Assembly (NCBI GenBank): GCA_020444065.1
Contig: JAHLLQ010000008.1
Span: forward strand, 1-64,000
DNA: 64,000 nucleotides
Source of the DNA: a bacterium
GTDB taxonomy: Bacteria > Sumerlaeota > Sumerlaeia > SLMS01 > JAHLLQ01
Reading direction: 5' to 3'
This document shows positions 9,308-18,992 of this stretch, piece by piece. Each line of letters opens with the position of its first letter. Positions within the stretch are counted from its first letter, which is position 1. The notes under the pieces were generated by a model. It made no database searches. It worked only from the letters and a program-made list of their open reading frames with translations, and was not told the origin of the DNA. The position numbers were made by a program, and so were the translations under genes.

Positions 9308-10501
9308 TCATTCAACTGCCCTCTTCAGTTCTGCGATAGAGGTGGCAACTTGCTTTCGACTGCCGTCGCTGATAACCATCTTGTCCGCCCAAATCTTCAT
9401 TCCGGCTGAGAGCTTGTTGTCATAGCAGAGAAAGATATCGCATTTGTGAAGGGCGGAGGCATGGTCGACGTCGAAGGTCAGTCCTTCGGTTGGAGGTTCT
9501 CCGGTTGCAAACATTTTCTCCAGTTCACGGAAAACCAGATCCAACATCATGGCGGGTTGAATTAGTAAGCCCAGCCGATGGTAACGCTCCAGCAAGAGTT
9601 CCCAGAGTTGGGCCGTCTGCTTTGAAGTCAGAATCCCATTGGTTCGGCTTCCAAAGTCAGGTGGTAGAGGGGTAACATCGTCCTGCTTGATGGAAAGGTC
9701 TGGGTGCGGGAAGGGTTGATCCCAATCAGCAATTACTTGCTGGTAATTCATGAGTCGGTAGCTATCCCACGGGGACGGAACCGCAGCCACCAACGCTGGG
9801 AGAGCAAGCGACACAATTCGTTGGGCGATGAGATCCTCCCGATTCTTCTGAAACTTGGAAACACTCCGCCTGGCATCTTTTCCCGGAGTGAATTCGGACA
9901 ATAGTTCCTGAATCTTTGCCTCCATTTCTTCAACTGACAACGTCGCGTATCCCTTATCGCTCTCCATGTGGAATTTCAAATACTCCTCTTGAGTCATCTT
10001 GAGCGACGAAAGAACCAGATTAGGATCCAGCAGGATCTGAGTGTGCTTCAGTCGCGAGAGCTTCTTCGATCTCAGTAACTCCTCATTAGCCCCCGATGCG
10101 TCGTAGTCAACGAGCGCAGCCATGTGTGCAATCACACCGCTGTAAATCCGCTGATTGTCCCCTTGGAGTCTCTCCCGAATGTCATACTGAACGCAGCCTG
10201 GCCAGTGTGTATCGATCAGGTGGAGGAACTCCTGAAGAATCACAAACTCAAAACTTGGAAGTATCCGTCTCCCACGAGTGAGATTCTCCAGTGCCTGACT
10301 CAGCTTCTGCCGAAGTTGCAAATCTGTGCACAAACAAAGCTCAATGGCATTGTGAGCAGACCCCCAGACCTGAATCTTTCCCTCTTCCTGTAACGCGAAT
10401 AGGCAGTCGTATAGAGGTGTTCCACTACCCGAAGCCAAATCAAAGGCTGCGCGGGATAGCGCGGACTGCTCAAGATAGACACTTTTGGGCTTATCAGTCA
10501 T
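9308..10501 (-). CDS. Large protein with PIN-like ends
   Basis: A 397-residue protein on the minus strand, with GGAG a few nt before ATG 10501. The N-terminus (S-V-Y-L-E-Q-S-A-L-S) has the form of the first strand and turn of PIN nucleases, with Glu where Asp is usual. Near residues 340-360, D-V-D-H-A-S-A-L then C-D-I-F-L-C-Y-D-N-K resembles the later acidic positions of the same fold. The middle 300 residues are helical and look like an insertion. A PIN-like RNase with a helical insert is suggested, not proved. It converges on the helicase unit across a 150-nt gap that has no clear terminator. Confidence 0.5.
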   Translation of the reverse strand: MTDKPKSVYLEQSALSRAAFDLASGSGTPLYDCLFALQEEGKIQVWGSAHNAIELCLCTDLQLRQKLSQALENLTRGRRILPSFEFVILQEFLHLIDTHWPGCVQYDIRERLQGDNQRIYSGVIAHMAALVDYDASGANEELLRSKKLSRLKHTQILLDPNLVLSSLKMTQEEYLKFHMESDKGYATLSVEEMEAKIQELLSEFTPGKDARRSVSKFQKNREDLIAQRIVSLALPALVAAVPSPWDSYRLMNYQQVIADWDQPFPHPDLSIKQDDVTPLPPDFGSRTNGILTSKQTAQLWELLLERYHRLGLLIQPAMMLDLVFRELEKMFATGEPPTEGLTFDVDHASALHKCDIFLCYDNKLSAGMKIWADKMVISDGSRKQVATSIAELKRAVE

Positions 10502-10755: not shown

Positions 10756-11265
10756 TTATCCCCTCTTCTTCCACTTCTTCAGTCTCGCGTCGCACTCGGC
10801 CTTCGGGAGCCGACGTTTGTTCTGGAGCAGGTGCTCCAGCTTTGACGCGGCGAGGCGTTCCTCCAGAAGCCCCCTCTGGACCAAGGTGTCGAGAATCCAG
10901 AGCGTTCCGTGGATCTCAACCGAACGCCCAACGCCCGCACGACGGAGAGGACCATCACCAGTCAGGAGCATACATTCCAACCTCTCTGCGAGCCAGAGAA
11001 CAGAGCAGTCTGCCAGATCGGGCCCTTCCCCAACTGCTTCCATCATTTCGACCAATTCACCGATTTCATCGACGGACAGACCATGGCATCTGACGTGGTT
11101 CGTGCGGATGTAGGCAAGCGCGATGGCGTGGCCGCCTTCCTCAAGCTGCCCTTCGATCAAGTCCGTCGTATGCGTTTCAATCCCGTTCTGAAACCAAAGG
11201 TCGAAAAGCCCGGCAATTTCAAGATCAATCAGGATGTTGGCGTCCTGCACGGCCACGCGAAGCAC
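10756..11265 (-). CDS. PIN-domain ribonuclease, probable toxin
   Basis: About 169 residues. The N-terminus has V-Q-D-A-N-I-L-I-D-L-E, the standard PIN start with its first catalytic Asp; near residue 92, L-A-D-C-S-V-L-W-L-A-E holds a later acidic residue, and L-L-T-G-D-G-P-L-R-R matches the last one. GTG 11265 is taken as start; a TTG at 11286 would overlap the upstream gene by 17 nt. It lies 4 nt after the XRE-ImmA gene on the same strand. Small PIN proteins next to COG2856 (XRE plus ImmA/IrrE) antitoxins form known toxin-antitoxin modules, so it probably cuts RNA when not neutralised. The C-terminus is strongly basic. Confidence 0.75.
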   Translation of the reverse strand: MLRVAVQDANILIDLEIAGLFDLWFQNGIETHTTDLIEGQLEEGGHAIALAYIRTNHVRCHGLSVDEIGELVEMMEAVGEGPDLADCSVLWLAERLECMLLTGDGPLRRAGVGRSVEIHGTLWILDTLVQRGLLEERLAASKLEHLLQNKRRLPKAECDARLKKWKKRG

Positions 11266-11269
11266 GATC

Positions 11270-12373
11270 TCAGACCGCCTTCCCAAACTGCTCGTCGAAC
11301 TCCCGCAGTGTTACCCGAAGAAGCCCCGTCGCCTTCGACCGCGTGATCAGGTCCTGCGCCGACGCCCGATGGACAAGCTGGCGGAAGCGGTTTGCCGACT
11401 CGCTCCCGGCCCAGGTGCCCGGCTCCTCCTTACGAAGGCCGGACTGGCTTGCGTGTATGCAATAGGACCGATAGGACTCCTCAACGATGATACCCAAATC
11501 CTTCGCCCGGCGCATCAGGGCGTTGATCGACATGCCCCATTGCTCCTTCATGGCGATGAGTTCTTGAAGGCTCACGTTTGGGAACGAGCGCTTGCGCCCG
11601 AACTCCGCCACAAAGGCTTCCTTCGGGATCAGCATCGCGCCAGCGAACCGGTAGCAAGCCGCCTCCTCGGTCTTCTTGTCGAGCCCCTCGGGCATCTTCA
11701 TCACCAGGTGCCCCAGCTCATGCAGTACCGTCAGCCGCTTACGAGGAAGATCACGGTCCAGCCACGCTCCCAGCACGACGACCGGCGAACCGTCGGCCCA
11801 GCCCGAGAGTCCGTTGAAGCTCTCCTCGGCTTCGACGCTCTTCACTTTCACGCCGTGATCTTCCAGCAACTCGATGGTGTTCGGCAGCGGCCCTGTCCCG
11901 AGCTTCCACGTCTTGCGTACCTTCTCGGCTGCTTCCTCCGCGCCGGTCATCAGGGCCTCGCCCTTGCGATCGGTCAGGTCGACTTTCAGCATCGGCGGCA
12001 TCTTCATCTCCAGGATGCGCTCGATCTCCAGGTAGCGCTCAAAGAACTCCTGCGCCTCCTCGATCACCTGCTCCTGCTTCTTCTTGCCGAGCTTGGCCTG
12101 CTTGCGGAACTCTATGCCGGAGAGGGTCACGCCGTGGCGCTCGAAGAAGAAGTCTGGCCGCACCGCCAGCGCCTTCGCCAGGGCGATAAGCACCTTCGAG
12201 TCTGGCTTCATAAGGCCCTTCTCGTACTTTGCAAGCGCAGCGTGCGAGACCAGCCCGCCCATCTCCCCAGATAGGCCCCGCAGCGACAGACCTCGCAGGG
12301 TACGCCCCCGCCGAAGCCGTTCGCCAAACCGCTCGTTCAGGTCTGTGTTGTTGGTCTGGGTGGTCGTTGTCAT
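11270..12373 (-). CDS. XRE-ImmA/IrrE fusion antitoxin/regulator
   Basis: A 367-residue two-domain protein. Residues 14-70 are an XRE helix-turn-helix (G-E-R-L-R-R-G-R-T-L-R-G, then ...S-H-A-A-L-A-K-Y-E-K-G). Residues 150-330 are an ImmA/IrrE zinc peptidase with H218-E-L-G-H222 and a downstream E-E-A-A-C-Y-R-F-A-G-A-M-L-I-P segment. Repressor and protease are fused here, unlike the separate pair at 5383-6416. AAGGGGG lies 7 nt before ATG. A PIN protein gene follows at 4 nt. Likely roles are antitoxin and autorepressor, with the protease domain perhaps sensing a trigger. It is divergent from the glycosyltransferase/radical-SAM operon across 288 nt. Confidence 0.85.
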   Translation of the reverse strand: MTTTTQTNNTDLNERFGERLRRGRTLRGLSLRGLSGEMGGLVSHAALAKYEKGLMKPDSKVLIALAKALAVRPDFFFERHGVTLSGIEFRKQAKLGKKKQEQVIEEAQEFFERYLEIERILEMKMPPMLKVDLTDRKGEALMTGAEEAAEKVRKTWKLGTGPLPNTIELLEDHGVKVKSVEAEESFNGLSGWADGSPVVVLGAWLDRDLPRKRLTVLHELGHLVMKMPEGLDKKTEEAACYRFAGAMLIPKEAFVAEFGRKRSFPNVSLQELIAMKEQWGMSINALMRRAKDLGIIVEESYRSYCIHASQSGLRKEEPGTWAGSESANRFRQLVHRASAQDLITRSKATGLLRVTLREFDEQFGKAV

Positions 12374-12442: not shown

Positions 12443-12461
12443 GGACACCATTTCTGTGTCC
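12443..12461. repeat. Inverted repeat in divergent promoter region
   Basis: GGACAC (12443-12448), 7-nt spacer, GTGTCC (12456-12461). It has the same half-site letters as O1/O2 but the arms are in the opposite order, so it is a different site or chance. It lies upstream of the -35 of the XRE-ImmA operon. Confidence 0.45.
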
Positions 12462-12548
12462 CTGTCCCGATCTCGGCGACTGCTCGTCGGACTTGTCGGC
12501 TACAGCGCAGTTGATGAGGGGGAAACGGCATCTAAAGGCCCCCTAGTC

Positions 12549-12572
12549 GGCTTCCAAGAGTGCTCGGAAGCC
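12549..12572. repeat. Inverted repeat upstream of GT4-radical SAM operon
   Basis: GGCTTCC (12549-12555), 10-nt spacer, GGAAGCC (12566-12572), perfect arms, about 90 nt before the likely start at 12662. It could be an operator, or a hairpin in the leader RNA. No clear -10/-35 pair was found near it. Confidence 0.4.
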
Positions 12573-12661
12573 TCTGCTTGCTTCCAGCCATCTGCTCGCA
12601 GCAGCAGTGATGGTGTCGGGTGAAACTGGTGACCAATCCTGCCGGAAGGGTGAGCTTGCGC

Positions 12662-15019
12662 GTGCGAATACTGAAAGTGATTCATGGGTACCCGATGCGG
12701 TACAATGCGGGGTCGGAGGTTTACTCACAGACGATCTGTCGAGCCTTGGCGGATTCCCACGAGGTACGGGTCTTCACGCGGGAGGAGGATCCCCTCCGTC
12801 CAGACTTCGAGGTTCGCCAGGAAACAGACCCCACGGACAGCCGGGTGCTTCTTCATTTGGTGAACAACCCCAGGCACCGGGATCGGTACCGCGTCACGGA
12901 CATCGATGTTCGCTTCGGAAGCCTCCTTGATGACTTTCAACCTGACATTGTGCATGTCGGCCATCTGAACCACCTTTCCACCTCTTTGGTGAACGAGGCT
13001 GTGTCTCGGGCCATTGCTGTCGTAATGACGCTTCACGACTACTGGCTCATGTGCCCCCGTGGTCAGTTCATGCAGATGTTCCCGGAATCGAAGGGCGAGA
13101 CTTGGGCAGCGTGCGATGGACAGGAGGACCGTAAGTGCGCCGAACGGTGCTACGCCCGGTACTTCAGTGGTGCCCCAGAGGAACAACCAACAGACATCGA
13201 GCATTGGGCTGACTGGGTCGGACGGAGAATGCAGCACGTTCGCTCGCTGACAGATAGTATCGACACCTTCATCGCTCCCGCCCATTATCTTGCCCGGAAG
13301 TTCGAGAAGGACTTCGGTCTGCCAGCGTCGAGGATACGTTACCTCGACTACGGCTTTGATCTCAAACGGTTCACCGGCAGGCAGCGGACTCAGGGCGAAC
13401 CCTTTACATTCGGCTACATCGGAACACACACAGCACCGAAAGGCATTCACCTGCTGCTCAAGGCGTTCGCCTCGGTGGAACCCCCAGTCCGGTTGCGCAT
13501 CTGGGGCCGGGATACAGGCGCTGTTACTGACAGCCTGAAGCGTCTGGTCGAGTCATTTGGTGAGGGCGCTCAAGAGCGGGTAGAATGGCTTCCTGAGTAC
13601 CGGAACGAAGAGATCATAGATCAGGTCTTCAACAAGATCGACGCACTCGTGGTACCTTCGATTTGGGTCGAAAACTCTCCCTTGGTCATACACGAAGCGC
13701 AGCAGGCCCGTGTACCTGTCATCACCGCAAATGTGGGTGGGATGGCCGAATACGTAAAGCACGAGGTGAACGGGCTCCTGTTTGACTTCCGAAATGTTGA
13801 TTCGCTTGCGGAACAGATGCAACGTCTTGCTTCGGAAAAGGAGTTGGCGCGGCGACTTGGGCATCGAGGCTATCTGAATGATCCGAAGGGAAACATCCCT
13901 TCCATCGAGGATCACGTCAGGGAACTTGAAGGCATCTATCGAGATGCAATTCGGCGACGCGATTCACACGAAGTCAGCCACTCAAAAGGTCCCTGGCGCA
14001 TCACCTTTGATACCAATCCAGACACCTGCAACCTGCATTGCATCATGTGCGAGGAACACTCGCCCCACAGCCCGCTGCAAAAGGAACGGAAGGAAGCGGG
14101 GCGTCCTCCAAGAATCATGCCTTTTGAGATGATAGAGCGCGTAATTGCAGAGGCCGCTCCCAACGGACTGAAAGAGGTCATTCCCTCTACGATGGGTGAA
14201 CCTCTGCTCTACGACCATTTCGAGGGCATCATCGATCTCTGCCAGCGTTACGGCGTGAAGCTGAACCTGACCACGAACGGCACCTTCCCGCGACTCGGAG
14301 CCAAGCGCTGGGCCGAGTTGGTTTGTCCAGTCGGCTCTGATGTGAAGATCTCCTGGAACGGCGCGACAAAGGCGACCGAGGAGTCGATCATGATCGGGGC
14401 TCGCTGGGAGAAGGTTCTAGAGAACGTCAGGGAGTTTATCGCCATTCGCGATCGGATTGCCGAGAATGGAGGCAACCGTTGCCGGGTAACCTTCCAACTC
14501 ACATTTCTCGATGCAAACGTACATGAGCTGGCGGATATTGTACGACTGGCGGTGGACCTGGGGATTGATCGCGTGAAGGGGCATCACCTGTGGGCGCACT
14601 TCGAGGAGATCAAGGGGCAGTCGATGAGACGAACGCCCGAGTCAATCAATCGATGGAACCATGCTGTTTCGGAGGCGTTCGCTGCTGCGCAGGAACGTAC
14701 ACTACCAAACGGACAGCAAATTCTGTTGGAAAACATCTACCCACTAAGCAGGGACGCGGTTGAGGACATCGCACCTGGTGGCCCCTGCCCCTTTCTTGGA
14801 CAAGAGGCGTGGATCAGTGCCGTTGGCAGATTCGACCCCTGCTGTGCTCCAGATGCTCAGCGGCGGACACTTGGCGACTTTGGCGAGTTGAACGGTCAGG
14901 GCATCATGGATATATGGCGCGGCCAGCCCTATCGTGAGCTTCTCGAAAACTACAGGAGTCACTCCCTTTGTCGGGGCTGCAACATGAGGAAACCTGTCAA
15001 GGAGGCCGGTGAGCCATGA
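12662..15019 (+). CDS. GT4 glycosyltransferase fused to radical SAM/SPASM enzyme
   Basis: About 785 residues in two domains. Residues 1-430 are a GT-B glycosyltransferase of family 4: N-terminal H-G-Y-P-x-R-Y-N-A-G-S-E-V-Y, H-D-Y-W near 125, C-terminal G-Y-I-G-T-H-T-A-P-K-G, and a P-S-I-W-V-E-N-S-P-L-V-I-H-E-A donor-site segment. Residues 445-780 are a radical SAM domain with C-N-L-H-C-I-M-C (CxxxCxxC, near 456-463), which should bind the 4Fe-4S cluster, and a C-terminal SPASM-type Cys set (C-P-F-L, D-P-C-C, C-R-G-C). GTG 12662 is chosen because G-G-A-A-G-G-G-T-G-A-G precedes it; GTG 12620 is an alternative. The stop overlaps the next start as ATGA. Substrate unknown; a glycosylated, radical-modified peptide or small molecule is inferred. 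Confidence 0.88.
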   Translation: MRILKVIHGYPMRYNAGSEVYSQTICRALADSHEVRVFTREEDPLRPDFEVRQETDPTDSRVLLHLVNNPRHRDRYRVTDIDVRFGSLLDDFQPDIVHVGHLNHLSTSLVNEAVSRAIAVVMTLHDYWLMCPRGQFMQMFPESKGETWAACDGQEDRKCAERCYARYFSGAPEEQPTDIEHWADWVGRRMQHVRSLTDSIDTFIAPAHYLARKFEKDFGLPASRIRYLDYGFDLKRFTGRQRTQGEPFTFGYIGTHTAPKGIHLLLKAFASVEPPVRLRIWGRDTGAVTDSLKRLVESFGEGAQERVEWLPEYRNEEIIDQVFNKIDALVVPSIWVENSPLVIHEAQQARVPVITANVGGMAEYVKHEVNGLLFDFRNVDSLAEQMQRLASEKELARRLGHRGYLNDPKGNIPSIEDHVRELEGIYRDAIRRRDSHEVSHSKGPWRITFDTNPDTCNLHCIMCEEHSPHSPLQKERKEAGRPPRIMPFEMIERVIAEAAPNGLKEVIPSTMGEPLLYDHFEGIIDLCQRYGVKLNLTTNGTFPRLGAKRWAELVCPVGSDVKISWNGATKATEESIMIGARWEKVLENVREFIAIRDRIAENGGNRCRVTFQLTFLDANVHELADIVRLAVDLGIDRVKGHHLWAHFEEIKGQSMRRTPESINRWNHAVSEAFAAAQERTLPNGQQILLENIYPLSRDAVEDIAPGGPCPFLGQEAWISAVGRFDPCCAPDAQRRTLGDFGELNGQGIMDIWRGQPYRELLENYRSHSLCRGCNMRKPVKEAGEP

Positions 15020-16686
15020 CTTGGAGGGACTTGATCGTAGCCCCGAATCAAACGCATCATCTTCGTCATGGAGAGCCTGCTTACGAAAGGCGATTCGATG
15101 AGGTCTTGAAGTTCCATTCACCGGGCCTCGCCCCGGTTCGTGCGAGTAAGGAAGCTTGGCACATTCGCCCCGACGGGTCTGATGCTTACTCTAATCGATT
15201 TCGACGGGCGTTCGGATTCTACGAAGACCTCGCGGCGGTGGATTCTGGCTCTGGATGGTTTCACATCAATGCGGTAGGTAGCCAAGCCTATGAAGTGAGT
15301 TTCGCGTGGTGCGGCAATTTCCAGGAAGGCCGATGTGCAGTGCGGTGCTTGAGTGGGAAGTACGGCCATATCAATCGCGATGGAGTCTTCACAACAGACC
15401 CCGAGTGGAACTATGCGGGCGACTTTCGAGATGGTGTTGCCGTCATCCAGAACAACAGCGGCAAGTGCACGCACGTAACCCAGGACGGCAGCCTTTTGCA
15501 CAACGCTTGGTTCGAGGATCTGGACGTCTTCCACAAGGGATTCGCACGGGCTCGCGATGAGCATGGCTGGATGCATATCAACACAGACGGGCAGGCGCTG
15601 TACGCACGTCGCTTTGCGCTCGTAGAGCCATTCTACAACGGCCAAGCCAGGATCGAACGGTTCGATGGAGCCCGCGAAGTGGTGAATGAGCGCGGCAAGT
15701 GCATCGTGGAACTCTGTCCCCCTCGACGCTCGGAGTTCGCTGTATTGTCTGAAGATCTCGTTGGCTACTGGAAGACAGAGGCGATCGCCACTGCCGTTGA
15801 GCTTGGTGTAGTGGATGCTCTTCCCGCAAGGTCCGAGGATATCGCGGGGAAGCTAGGCCTGCGACAGGATCGACTCCACCGACTTCTCATGGGACTCGGA
15901 GAGTTGGGTATGGTGGTGGTGTCAGGCGAGCAATGGGCCCTTACGGCGAAGGGAAGTTATCTTCGTCGTGATCATCCTTCTTCGTTGTCCGAGGCCGCCG
16001 CAGAGTACAGCACGTTGCTCAGGGAACCGTGGCAGTGTCTCCGGACGGCGATGCAGTCACATTCAGAATGGCAGCCTCCAGATATCTTTCATTCTGTTGC
16101 AAACGATGAAGAGCGCCTGGCCCCGCATCACAGGATGCTGAGCAGCTATGCTGATCATGACTATGCTCAAGTTCCGCCGCTCCTTGGCCTTGAGGGTAAC
16201 GAGCGTGTCATCGATGCAGGCGGGGGAACTGGTGCGCTTGCGCGGCAACTTCTGAAAGTCCACCCGTCGCTTCACTGTACGCTTCTGGATTTGCCAAACG
16301 TTATCGAGGCCGCAAAGAGGCAGCCGGGGCCCGGTAGTGGTCTTCACTACTGCTCTTGTGACCTGTTTGAGGCCTGGCCCATTACTGCGGACGCCGTGGT
16401 TTTGGCACGGGTGCTTCATGACTGGGACGACGAAAATGCGGTGCAAATCCTGCGCAACGCGAGACGGTCGCTGGAGACGAAAGGCAGGCTCTTCGTTATC
16501 GAGATGATCCGTCCTGACGAGGGGTTCGGAGGTTCCCTTTGCGATCTCCACCTTCTGGCTGTGACCGGCGGACAAGAGCGCACTCGGGAGGAGTTCGCGG
16601 ATCTTCTCGATCGATCAGGATTCTCGCTGAAGGAGGTTCGTTCGACTTCGTCAGTCGTTTCAGTTCTGGTAGGCACTGCAAAATGA
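15016..16686 (+). CDS. WG-repeat protein fused to SAM-dependent O-methyltransferase
   Basis: A 556-residue fusion. Residues 45-225 hold five WG-type repeats of about 36-40 residues, each with an H-I/V-x-x-D/V-G core followed by an aromatic F-x-E/D-G segment. Residues 238-325 are a winged-helix dimerisation domain like those of Methyltransf_2 enzymes, and residues 330-556 are a class I methyltransferase: D-A-G-G-G-T-G-A-L binds SAM, and L-H-D-W-D-D is the family signature. Both flanking junctions are 4-nt ATGA overlaps (15016 and 16683), so it is coupled to the glycosyltransferase/radical-SAM gene and the phosphatase gene. The repeats may bind the substrate or partner protein. Methyl acceptor unknown. 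Confidence 0.88.
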   Translation: MTWRDLIVAPNQTHHLRHGEPAYERRFDEVLKFHSPGLAPVRASKEAWHIRPDGSDAYSNRFRRAFGFYEDLAAVDSGSGWFHINAVGSQAYEVSFAWCGNFQEGRCAVRCLSGKYGHINRDGVFTTDPEWNYAGDFRDGVAVIQNNSGKCTHVTQDGSLLHNAWFEDLDVFHKGFARARDEHGWMHINTDGQALYARRFALVEPFYNGQARIERFDGAREVVNERGKCIVELCPPRRSEFAVLSEDLVGYWKTEAIATAVELGVVDALPARSEDIAGKLGLRQDRLHRLLMGLGELGMVVVSGEQWALTAKGSYLRRDHPSSLSEAAAEYSTLLREPWQCLRTAMQSHSEWQPPDIFHSVANDEERLAPHHRMLSSYADHDYAQVPPLLGLEGNERVIDAGGGTGALARQLLKVHPSLHCTLLDLPNVIEAAKRQPGPGSGLHYCSCDLFEAWPITADAVVLARVLHDWDDENAVQILRNARRSLETKGRLFVIEMIRPDEGFGGSLCDLHLLAVTGGQERTREEFADLLDRSGFSLKEVRSTSSVVSVLVGTAK

Positions 16687-17351
16687 CTTCTGATGTTCTC
16701 CCCGACCACGTGCATACCACCCTGAGGGCAATCCTTGATCTGCCAAGAACTTGTCCTGTGGCGGTGCTGTTGCGGCACGCCGAACGTGGCCCCATCCTAC
16801 AGGGAGAAGTTGGGATGGAGGTCCTGCTTACCGATGCTGGATTTCGTGAAGCCCAGGAACTTGGACGTCAAATCGGTCAGAGGATAGTCGGTATAGATTC
16901 GAGTCCGGTTGAACGATGTATGCAAACCAGTAGAGCCATGTTGGAAGGAGCTTCAGGAAGTGTGGCTATCAGCCAGAGTAGTCTGCTTGGAGACCCTGGA
17001 GTCTTCGTTGTCGATGGTGAGAAGGCGTTCGAGAACTGGGTGCGATTCGGGAACGACGGAGTGATGAAGCGAATCTGCACACAAGATGAACCACTTCCAG
17101 GTATGGCCGATCCCCAGAAGGCAGCAGCGCGGTTGTTGGATCACATTTCCGCAACGATTCATGGCAAGGCTGGTGTGCACCTTTTCGTTACCCACGATGT
17201 GATCCTCGCGGGGTTCGTTGGAAGGCTACTTGGAGTGAACCCGGAGCAGGACGCGTTTCCTCGCTACCTTGAGGGGGCGGTTACTTGGCAGGTGGGTGAT
17301 GAGGTCCAAATTCGCTACCGAGATAGTCTGGTGCTTCGGCCTTCGCGCTAG
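16683..17351 (+). CDS. Histidine phosphatase family protein
   Basis: A 222-residue protein with the phosphoglycerate-mutase-like fold. L-L-R-H-A-E-R-G near residue 30 is the RHG-type catalytic segment with the phospho-accepting His; the second His is in F-V-T-H-D near 178. ATG 16683 overlaps the upstream stop as ATGA, so this is the third gene of the coupled operon. Family members remove phosphate from sugars, nucleotides or proteins; here it may act on the product or intermediate of the glycosyl/methyl pathway. Its TAG stop (17349-17351) and the stop of the convergent AbiEi-like gene lie in one CTAG. Confidence 0.85.
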   Translation: MTSDVLPDHVHTTLRAILDLPRTCPVAVLLRHAERGPILQGEVGMEVLLTDAGFREAQELGRQIGQRIVGIDSSPVERCMQTSRAMLEGASGSVAISQSSLLGDPGVFVVDGEKAFENWVRFGNDGVMKRICTQDEPLPGMADPQKAAARLLDHISATIHGKAGVHLFVTHDVILAGFVGRLLGVNPEQDAFPRYLEGAVTWQVGDEVQIRYRDSLVLRPSR

Positions 17352-18838
17352 CATTCTTCATTTCCAATTTTCTCCAGCAGGTGAGCAGCGCCTTCCCTCG
17401 CCCCCTCGGGATGGATTGCCAGGTCCACGTGGGTGAAAATGGGGCTTGCGACTTGGGTTTGAAGCCTCCTTTCGGTGCCCAGGAAGGCGACCTGGTCAGC
17501 GTACTCCATGACCCAGACGTTGGCGGCGTCTTCCTCGCATTGCACAAAGTGGAGCTTCCTCTTGAGCTGGGAGCTGAGCTTGCCTTCGAGATAGCAGGTG
17601 ACGAGTTGGAAGTCCGCCTGACCACCCCAAAGGTAAGCTCCGCCGAATCCGGTGAAAGCGTACCTGCGTCTTGCGGCCCGCAGGCGTTTCTCCAGGGCCG
17701 ACATCGCCTGTTGCCCTGACTTGCTTGGGATCACGCCTTTCAGGATGTTCCCGCATGGCGGGGTGTAAGCCTCACGCCATGCACTCAGGAGTGTGTCGGG
17801 CTCTGGGACGCGAATGGTTCTTCCCTCGCACTCGATCAAATCTTTCTCGCGAAGACGCTCCAGGATGCGGCTCATGTGCCCGCTGTCCACGCCAGTAGCC
17901 TCTCCGATCTCGCGTGCAGTCCATTCTCTACCGGAATGGAGAAGAAGCCAGTGGACGACGCGTGAACTCGTGGGTGCGAAGAGGTTCTTCTTTCGCCCCG
18001 GAGTTCGCTTCTCCGACTTGGTGCCCTCGATGATCACGTGGACTTGGGGACGATTTATGATGCTGGCGGTCCCCTCGGTAAGTTCCTGCCAATCGACTTC
18101 CTGAGCGTTGTGGAGCGCCGCGCCGACTGGGCTCCAATCTTCAACCACAAGAGGTGGCCGGGCTTCGGCCTCAGTGGGAACATCCGAGGCGTCGTTCTGT
18201 GGGGTGCCGTTCGATTCACTCGCATCGGTCGCCAGCGCCCTCAGGATGTCGCCAATCCACGCCGGAGCGTAGCGCACATCGTCCAGGAGTTCCCGGCGAT
18301 CATCAGGGCTGACTTTCTCTCGAAGCCGATTGATCAAGGCTTCATCGACTTGATTCCTTCCCAAGTGATCAAGGGCATGGATGATCAACCCGCTCAGCTT
18401 TCCGGCGGTAGAAATGGCGCGGGAGCTTCGATTCTTCAGTACGATCTGCTGGTTGCCGACCTGAACGGTTCTGGATCTGCCATCGGTGAGGAAGACGATC
18501 TTCGCTGGGACCTGATCGGAGAGACCGAGCAAGTTCGCGGCGTAAGCGCCTGTTGGCTGTAAGCGTATGCCGTCTCGCGATTGGAGAGCCTTCGCGACCG
18601 CCTCGGGTGAAGGTGAAAGCGTCCCCAACTTCGGGTGCTCCCTGGGCACATCATAAAGGCCGCGAGCCAGCCGACGGATCAGTCCTTCCCTTTCTGCATT
18701 CATCAAAGCTAACCGGACCGCCTGGCTCGTCCCGAGATCGGTGAATTCAGAAGATGTGAACACCCAACCGGGTCCGTGATCAGTGATCCTGAAGAGGACC
18801 TTCATCGCCGTTGAGGTTGGCTGCTGTTTTCCAGGCAT
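17348..18838 (-). CDS. DUF6088/AbiEi-like transcriptional regulator
   Basis: A 496-residue protein. Residues 1-200 match DUF6088/AbiEi-antitoxin N-terminal proteins: a winged helix, then R-G-L-Y-D-V-P-R-E-H-P, G-A-Y-A-A-N-L-L-G-L-S-D-Q-V-P and L-T-D-G-R-S-R. Residues 280-350 form a second winged helix (L-L-L-H-S-G-R-E-W-T-A-R-E-I-G), and the rest resembles the AbiEi C-terminal domain. AbiEi proteins repress their own promoter and neutralise an AbiEii nucleotidyltransferase toxin. No AbiEii gene is adjacent; a nucleotidyltransferase-like gene lies far away at 1887. It converges on the phosphatase gene with a 4-bp overlap. A long palindrome (18913-18949) 75 nt upstream of its ATG could be its operator. 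Confidence 0.78.
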   Translation of the reverse strand: MPGKQQPTSTAMKVLFRITDHGPGWVFTSSEFTDLGTSQAVRLALMNAEREGLIRRLARGLYDVPREHPKLGTLSPSPEAVAKALQSRDGIRLQPTGAYAANLLGLSDQVPAKIVFLTDGRSRTVQVGNQQIVLKNRSSRAISTAGKLSGLIIHALDHLGRNQVDEALINRLREKVSPDDRRELLDDVRYAPAWIGDILRALATDASESNGTPQNDASDVPTEAEARPPLVVEDWSPVGAALHNAQEVDWQELTEGTASIINRPQVHVIIEGTKSEKRTPGRKKNLFAPTSSRVVHWLLLHSGREWTAREIGEATGVDSGHMSRILERLREKDLIECEGRTIRVPEPDTLLSAWREAYTPPCGNILKGVIPSKSGQQAMSALEKRLRAARRRYAFTGFGGAYLWGGQADFQLVTCYLEGKLSSQLKRKLHFVQCEEDAANVWVMEYADQVAFLGTERRLQTQVASPIFTHVDLAIHPEGAREGAAHLLEKIGNEEC

Positions 18839-18912
18839 CTTGGAAGGAATAGGCTCCGATTCAGCTTCAACAACCCGAAGGAATGGGGCTATTTCGCCAA
18901 CTGAATCAAGCC

Positions 18913-18949
18913 ATTATGAAACAAAAACGAACCGTTTTTGTTTCATAAT
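18913..18949. repeat. Perfect 17-bp-arm palindrome
   Basis: Arm ATTATGAAACAAAAACG (18913-18929), 3-nt centre aac, then the exact reverse complement (18933-18949). It lies 75 nt upstream of the AbiEi-like gene start. AbiEi proteins bind inverted repeats in their own promoters, so an operator is the first guess. A terminator is less likely because no T-run follows the hairpin on either strand. Confidence 0.85.
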
Positions 18950-18954
18950 ACCCG

Positions 18955-18992
18955 TTTTCTGACTGAATACGGCACCCTATTTAGTCAGAAAA
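18955..18992. repeat. Imperfect 15-bp-arm inverted repeat
   Basis: TTTTCTGACTGAATA (18955-18969), 8-nt spacer, TATTTAGTCAGAAAA (18978-18992). The arms match at 14 of 15 positions, and the odd pair is G/T, which would form a wobble in RNA. It is only 5 nt from the preceding palindrome. Confidence 0.75.

What the first reader, a model, noticed from the sequence alone, without database searches (positions are those of the whole stretch)
12443..18992. Candidate new system: GT4-radical SAM, WG-methyltransferase, histidine phosphatase, with a convergent AbiEi-like regulator
Three genes are joined by 4-nt ATGA overlaps (15016, 16683). They encode a glycosyltransferase/radical-SAM fusion, a WG-repeat/methyltransferase fusion and a phosphatase, so one pathway could glycosylate, radically modify, methylate and dephosphorylate a target. 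The unit lies in a defence-type island next to a toxin-antitoxin pair, and a DUF6088/AbiEi-like protein sits at its end. I know no named defence or RiPP system with this set.
Basis: partly seen in the sequence, partly recalled or inferred. Interest (0 to 1): 0.85.

Follow-up and report, generated by a model that had tools for sequence, protein, structure and literature searches.

The report
Mobile glycosyltransferase–radical-SAM biosynthetic gene cassette
Three neighbouring genes in this bacterium belong to a previously unnamed set of enzyme genes that has spread between very different microbes, and whose core also sits in the genome of a virus of the insect symbiont Wolbachia; it probably builds an unusual sugar-containing molecule, but the product is unknown.

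Summary
In detail: GT4–radical-SAM/SPASM (12662-15019), WG-repeat–O-methyltransferase (15016-16686) and histidine phosphatase (16683-17351) form one operon with ATGA overlaps. It is not unique. I found the core in 43 genomes from Proteobacteria, Myxococcota, Chloroflexota, Planctomycetota, Chlamydiota, Bacteroidota, a cyanobacterium and an archaeon, plus 20 Myxococcota loci found with the radical-SAM domain alone; all 20 have WG next to it. The usual operon is [short peptide]–[NDP-sugar-type SDR]–GT4–rSAM–WG–O-methyltransferase–phosphatase(±nucleotidyltransferase). O-methyltransferase and carbamoyltransferase replace each other (Fisher p=3e-8). In the window's class the cassette occurs in 1 of 39 genomes, and it rides on a Tn7-like element, Arsenophonus plasmids and phage WO: it is mobile. 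Closest known system: UC2–UC4 of phage WO's Undecim Cluster, product unknown. Best reading: a mobile pathway for a glycosylated, radical-SAM-modified, O-capped product; whether the acceptor is a peptide or a small molecule is open. A conserved 50–100 aa peptide ORF precedes the operon in 27 of 63 relatives, but not here, and also occurs as an orphan gene. A defence role is not shown. The AbiEi-like gene is a chance neighbour.

The parts
12662..15019 (+). GT4 glycosyltransferase (12662-13990) fused to radical SAM/SPASM domain (13994-15016); CX3CX2C radical-SAM motif and SPASM cysteines intact
   Evidence: Pfam/NCBIfam; start set by homologues; alignment A2; fold matches rSAM/SPASM enzymes
15016..16686 (+). 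WG-repeat beta-propeller domain (15016-15720) fused to O-methyltransferase (15721-16683) with intact SAM motif DAGGGTG and HDW motif
   Evidence: propeller model pLDDT 96.5; ATGA overlap with the upstream gene
16683..17351 (+). Histidine phosphatase superfamily protein (RHAER motif), short form without the nucleotidyltransferase-like extension seen in many relatives
   Evidence: ATGA overlap with the upstream gene
17348..18838 (-). Neighbour, not part of the cassette: DUF6088/AbiEi-like protein with winged-helix domain, convergent, no AbiEii beside it
   Evidence: absent from all 43 relatives
10756..12373 (-). Neighbour, not part of the cassette: Xre-ImmA protein (PADLOC RmrA-like) with DUF3368 protein, toxin-antitoxin-like pair
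   Evidence: absent from all 43 relatives

Best explanation
This is a horizontally mobile biosynthetic cassette that makes a glycosylated, radical-SAM-modified product. The GT4 half transfers a sugar to an acceptor, and the fused rSAM/SPASM half then carries out a radical oxidation, deoxygenation, epimerisation or cross-link on that glycoside. The WG beta-propeller holds the substrate or docks the enzymes. The O-methyltransferase caps a hydroxyl (a carbamoyltransferase does so in other lineages), and the histidine phosphatase removes a phosphate from an intermediate or activates the product. Where present, the NDP-sugar-type SDR prepares the sugar. Shown: domain content, gene order, conservation, fusions, intact motifs, exchange of the two capping enzymes, and mobility. 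Inferred: order of steps, substrate and product. I favour a sugar-derived small molecule or glycoconjugate as acceptor over a ribosomal peptide (about 65:35).
For: Domains. rSAM 63/63, WG 63/63, GT 61/63 in order; in the unbiased rSAM-only search of 379 Myxococcota genomes, 20/20 loci inspected have WG adjacent and 19/20 have GT, the missing one at a contig end. SDR-GT-rSAM single-chain fusion in L053 and separate genes with short overlaps in deep lineages point to coupled steps. SDR matches NDP-sugar dehydratase/epimerase models. O-MT and carbamoyltransferase are mutually exclusive, 1 locus with both against 45 and 12 with one, p=2.7e-8. Phosphatase class is swapped (His or Tyr/DSP type) while an NTase domain recurs. 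rSAM fold resembles BlsE and DesII, which act on sugar substrates, as well as SuiB/SkfB/PqqE, which act on peptides. Mobility: 1/39 genomes of the class, tree at odds with taxonomy, Tn7-like, plasmid and phage contexts.
Against: No product, substrate or expression is known. No exporter is conserved with the free-living cassette. The short peptide upstream in 27/63 loci would fit a peptide acceptor. In phage WO the methyltransferase half has lost its SAM motif, so methylation is dispensable there. The window lacks SDR and peptide, so its copy may be incomplete.
Confidence: 0.55

Rival explanations
1. The cassette is a RiPP-like system: the 50-100 aa upstream peptide (core DN[RH]xxQLNPxHPxYxxSRG) is the substrate, glycosylated by GT4, modified by the rSAM/SPASM domain and methylated, roughly like mycofactocin maturation.
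For: Peptide is the first gene in 27/63 loci including Bacteroidota and Verrucomicrobiota; one copy per genome and beside the cassette in 20 of the 21 cassette genomes with a hit; two core copies in L024 and L036; rSAM fold matches SuiB, SkfB, PqqE.
Against: Same motif occurs as orphan small genes or N-termini of larger ORFs in genomes and plasmids without the cassette seen nearby. Absent from the window genome, Undecim Cluster and Arsenophonus copies. No RRE/PqqD-like domain found by Pfam in the cassette proteins.
Confidence: 0.22
2. It is an anti-phage defence system, making an antiviral metabolite or modifying a cellular target, carried in defence islands.
For: L027 copy lies between brxHI and pglZ/brxA of a BREX operon; L034 and L049 lie beside BREX genes; GmrSD, AbiEii, HipA and PD-T4-6-type neighbours elsewhere; window has RmrA-like and AbiEi-like neighbours; viperins are among the fold matches.
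Against: Cassette proteins match no PADLOC system beyond weak generic rSAM and MT hits. Control genes from the same genomes also matched many PADLOC models: 114 families from 72 genes against 181 from 76 flanking genes, so enrichment is not shown. Presence on mobile elements explains the company.
Confidence: 0.1
3. It is a cell-surface glycan (LPS/EPS) modification operon, as proposed for the Undecim Cluster.
For: SDR and GT4 are typical of glycan loci; the Undecim paper suggests EPS/LPS roles for WD0611-WD0613.
Against: No flippase, polymerase, ligase or other glycan genes recur beside the free-living cassette; present in an archaeon and Chlamydiota.
Confidence: 0.13

Closest known systems
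Undecim Cluster of Wolbachia phage WO (WD0611-WD0621), UC2-UC4
   Same: SDR, GT4-rSAM fusion (52% identity over 779 aa) and WG-methyltransferase-like protein (30% over about 530 aa) in the same order
   Different: Undecim adds NTP-transferase, PhyH dioxygenase, ABC exporter, PLP lyases and MFS; its MT half is degenerate; no histidine phosphatase or peptide seen. The window lacks the SDR and has an intact MT motif and phosphatase; its relatives are mostly free-living.
Arsenophonus plasmid clusters (CP132902, CP132904, CP132908)
   Same: SDR, GT4-rSAM (54%) and WG-MT (37%, CP132902) in order
   Different: Followed by PhyH dioxygenase and threonine aldolase as in Undecim; no phosphatase seen
BlsE/DesII and SuiB/SkfB/PqqE radical SAM enzymes
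   Same: Fold of the rSAM half (TM about 0.55-0.65)
   Different: Only 13-20% identity; none of these is recalled as GT4-fused or WG-associated (own knowledge)
Mycofactocin pathway (own knowledge)
   Same: Combines a small peptide, rSAM/SPASM, glycosyltransferase and methyltransferase
   Different: No RRE protein or peptidase in the cassette; different GT family; extended NDP-sugar-type SDR

Membership tests
Undecim Cluster (phage WO) | Homologous SDR-GT4-rSAM-WG-MT core in order | tested here: met
   GT-rSAM and WG-MT homologous and in order; SDR present in 35/63 relatives but missing in the window itself
Undecim Cluster (phage WO) | Eleven-gene set including PhyH, ABC exporter, PLP lyases, association with phage WO | tested here: not met
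   Those genes identified in L074; none beside the window operon. It is a relative of the core, not an Undecim Cluster
RiPP (rSAM-modified) | Conserved precursor peptide next to maturase | tested here: inconclusive
   Peptide in 27/63 relatives, absent here and in G000; orphans exist
RiPP (rSAM-modified) | Recognition element (RRE/PqqD-like) in the cluster | tested here: not met
   No such domain in the window cassette proteins by Pfam; divergent RREs could be missed, and not all RiPP systems have one
RiPP (rSAM-modified) | Peptide is modified by the enzymes | not testable with these tools
   Needs mass spectrometry
Known anti-phage defence system (PADLOC) | Cassette proteins match a defined system | tested here: not met
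   Only weak pVip and mad2 hits to generic rSAM and MT domains
Known anti-phage defence system (PADLOC) | Enriched beside defence genes | tested here: inconclusive
   Three BREX-adjacent loci, one nested in the operon, but control genes also score widely
AbiE type IV toxin-antitoxin | AbiEi next to AbiEii | tested here: not met
   AbiEi-like 17348-18838 has no AbiEii beside it
Radical SAM/SPASM superfamily | CX3CX2C motif and SPASM cysteines | tested here: met
   CNLHCIMC and CPF...PCC...C..C conserved in alignment A2

The most novel reading that the evidence does not exclude
A new class of mobile, radical-SAM-modified glycopeptide or glycoside, made by one enzyme core in many bacterial phyla and an archaeon, from which phage WO's Undecim Cluster was derived; the QLNP peptide would be its substrate and the WG propeller a new kind of substrate-binding module.
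Probability: 0.22. Interest if true: 0.85.

Novelty: new variant of a known kind. Interest (0 to 1): 0.6.

Why it matters
The Undecim Cluster of Wolbachia phage WO is highly expressed, mobile between endosymbionts and of unknown function. Tying its core to a widespread cassette in free-living, partly cultivable bacteria (Azospira oryzae, Pseudodesulfovibrio, Paludibacterium) gives tractable hosts in which the product can be isolated, so a question stuck in an uncultivable symbiont becomes testable. The GT4-rSAM coupling, the WG propeller as a fixed partner and the methyl/carbamoyl swap describe an enzyme logic that I found in no paper of the held library.

Tried and rejected
AbiEi-like protein as cassette regulator: rejected, absent in relatives. 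Short ORF upstream in the window (12443-12660) as precursor: no peptide match, nor convincing in G000 (best E 0.08 inside a 481-aa ORF). SDR remnant upstream in the window: none, unlike L055 and L068, which keep SDR remnants. Cassette in viral contigs: none. Peptide in the phage collection: none; long peptide in plasmids: none, consensus peptide: orphans. Orphan peptide partner: the convergent neighbours are unrelated to each other. Defence enrichment by PADLOC tally: no clear difference from control. Literature for GT + rSAM + WG, or for rSAM + carbamoyltransferase + histidine phosphatase + GT + NTase: nothing. In one search the rSAM2 column is a cross-match of the main rSAM domain and is ignored.

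Full report
CHECK OF THE OBSERVATION. The three genes and their overlaps are as described. Domains: GT4 plus Radical_SAM plus SPASM; WG repeat plus O-methyltransferase with dimerisation domain; histidine phosphatase. The rSAM motif reads CNLHCIMC, the SPASM cysteines are present, the methyltransferase has DAGGGTG and LHDW, and the phosphatase has RHAER (alignments). Homologues start at MKILKVIHGYP, which puts the window's start at GTG 12662. So the unit is 12662-17351, not 12443-18992.

IT IS A WIDESPREAD CASSETTE. A scan of one genome per species with the WG-MT protein gave 43 loci with the WG domain, in Proteobacteria, Myxococcota, Gemmatimonadota, Chloroflexota, Planctomycetota, Verrucomicrobiota, Chlamydiota, Bacteroidota, a cyanobacterium and an archaeon (most are MAGs, so single taxon assignments may be wrong). 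All 43 carry the rSAM half beside it, and 42 the GT half. To avoid the bias of searching with WG, I searched 379 Myxococcota genomes with the rSAM domain alone: 27 have it. In 20 loci fetched, 20 have WG directly downstream and 19 GT directly upstream; the missing GT lies beyond a contig end. Over 63 relatives: SDR 35, O-MT 46, carbamoyltransferase 13, histidine phosphatase 48, NTase-like domain 18, NTase-tyrosine-phosphatase fusion 2, upstream peptide 27 (counts are lower bounds because of contig ends).

ANATOMY AND VARIANTS. The common order is [peptide]-[SDR]-GT4-rSAM-WG-O-MT-phosphatase, mostly with 4-nt overlaps. GT and rSAM are separate genes in Chloroflexota, Chlamydiota, Bacteroidota and the archaeon, fused in most Proteobacteria, and fused with SDR in one chain in L053. 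The WG domain persists when the methyltransferase is lost or separate. A Myxococcota form has WG, phosphatase, carbamoyltransferase and two further rSAM/SPASM proteins. O-MT and carbamoyltransferase almost never co-occur (1 against 45 and 12; p=2.7e-8; related loci are not independent, so the p-value is optimistic). In an archaeon and a Bacteroidales genome a Pol-beta NTase is fused to a tyrosine phosphatase, taking the place of the histidine phosphatase.

THE PEPTIDE. A 50-100 aa ORF with core DN[RH]xxQLNPxHPxYxxSRG lies at the 5' end of the operon. In cassette genomes it is beside the cassette in 20 of the 21 genomes with a hit; the exception is an archaeal MAG with the motif on another contig. 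In a sample of 300 genomes from the order of Azospira, 4 genomes without the cassette hold a motif match (two of them strong), and none of the other 299 has the rSAM. It also appears as an orphan on plasmids of Pseudomonas, Vibrio, Thioclava and Cereibacter. So the linkage is real but not exclusive. Neither Pfam nor NCBIfam has the family. The window and its genome lack it.

STRUCTURE. The rSAM half (pLDDT 87) matches SuiB, SkfB, BlsE, DesII, PqqE and viperin at 12-20% identity: both peptide and sugar or nucleotide substrates are compatible. The WG domain (pLDDT 96.5) is a beta-propeller, nearest to BamB and designed propellers, with no sequence relative in the PDB. The SDR is most like NDP-sugar dehydratases and epimerases.

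MOBILITY AND NEIGHBOURS. Only 1 of 39 genomes in the window's class and 1 of 40 in its phylum has the cassette. The protein tree mixes phyla, for example Gemmatimonadota inside Pseudomonadota and Desulfovibrionaceae with a delta-proteobacterial MAG. Contexts: TnsB-like and TniQ genes upstream in Azospira; tyrosine integrase in L047 and resolvase in L042; BREX genes around L027 (nested between brxHI and pglZ) and beside L034 and L049 (and gene maps; the assignment for L034 rests on near-identity of its genes to those of L027, that for L049 on the tally); phage WO; Arsenophonus plasmids. PADLOC tallies for 76 flanking genes (181 families) and 72 control genes (114 families) do not settle enrichment, since one protein can match many models.

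CLOSEST KNOWN. UC2-UC4 (WD0612-WD0614) of the Undecim Cluster (PMC9203015). That paper reports transfers among Wolbachia, Rickettsia, Cardinium and Phycorickettsia and suggests EPS/LPS and methylation roles; a 2025 paper calls the functions unknown (PMC12801941). I found no paper that links it to free-living bacteria. In the phage copy the methyltransferase half is degenerate.

MECHANISM. Shown: content, order, conservation, fusions, swaps, intact motifs, mobility. Inferred: sugar transfer, then radical chemistry on the glycoside, then capping by methyl or carbamoyl, with a phosphatase step. The acceptor is undecided. The window copy, without SDR and peptide, may rely on host NDP-sugars; 28 of 63 relatives also show no SDR nearby, partly because of contig ends.

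Noticed in passing
L036:4089-4334, L024:3073-3318, L114:4992-5137, L112:4992-5123: Small-protein family with core DN[RH]xxQLNPxxxxYxxSRG, absent from Pfam and NCBIfam, both cassette-linked and orphan, sometimes as the N-terminus of larger ORFs (L106, L107).
   Followed up: partly
L027:3833-14960: Whole cassette nested between brxHI and pglZ/brxA of a BREX operon in Pseudodesulfovibrio pelocollis.
   Followed up: partly
L023:536-5983: TnsB-like and TniQ (Tn7-like) genes directly upstream of the cassette in Azospira oryzae.
   Followed up: partly
L057:7913-9313 and L061:3316-4743: Pol-beta nucleotidyltransferase fused to a tyrosine phosphatase in the cassettes of an archaeal MAG and a Bacteroidales MAG.
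   Followed up: no
L049:13035-16751, L050:11997-15742: Myxococcota variant with carbamoyltransferase and two extra radical SAM/SPASM proteins.
   Followed up: partly
window 9308-10501 (-): 397-aa protein without any Pfam, NCBIfam or PADLOC match, beside the toxin-antitoxin-like pair.
   Followed up: no
window 17348-18838 (-): Lone AbiEi/DUF6088 protein with an added winged helix and a long C-terminal part, without AbiEii.
   Followed up: partly
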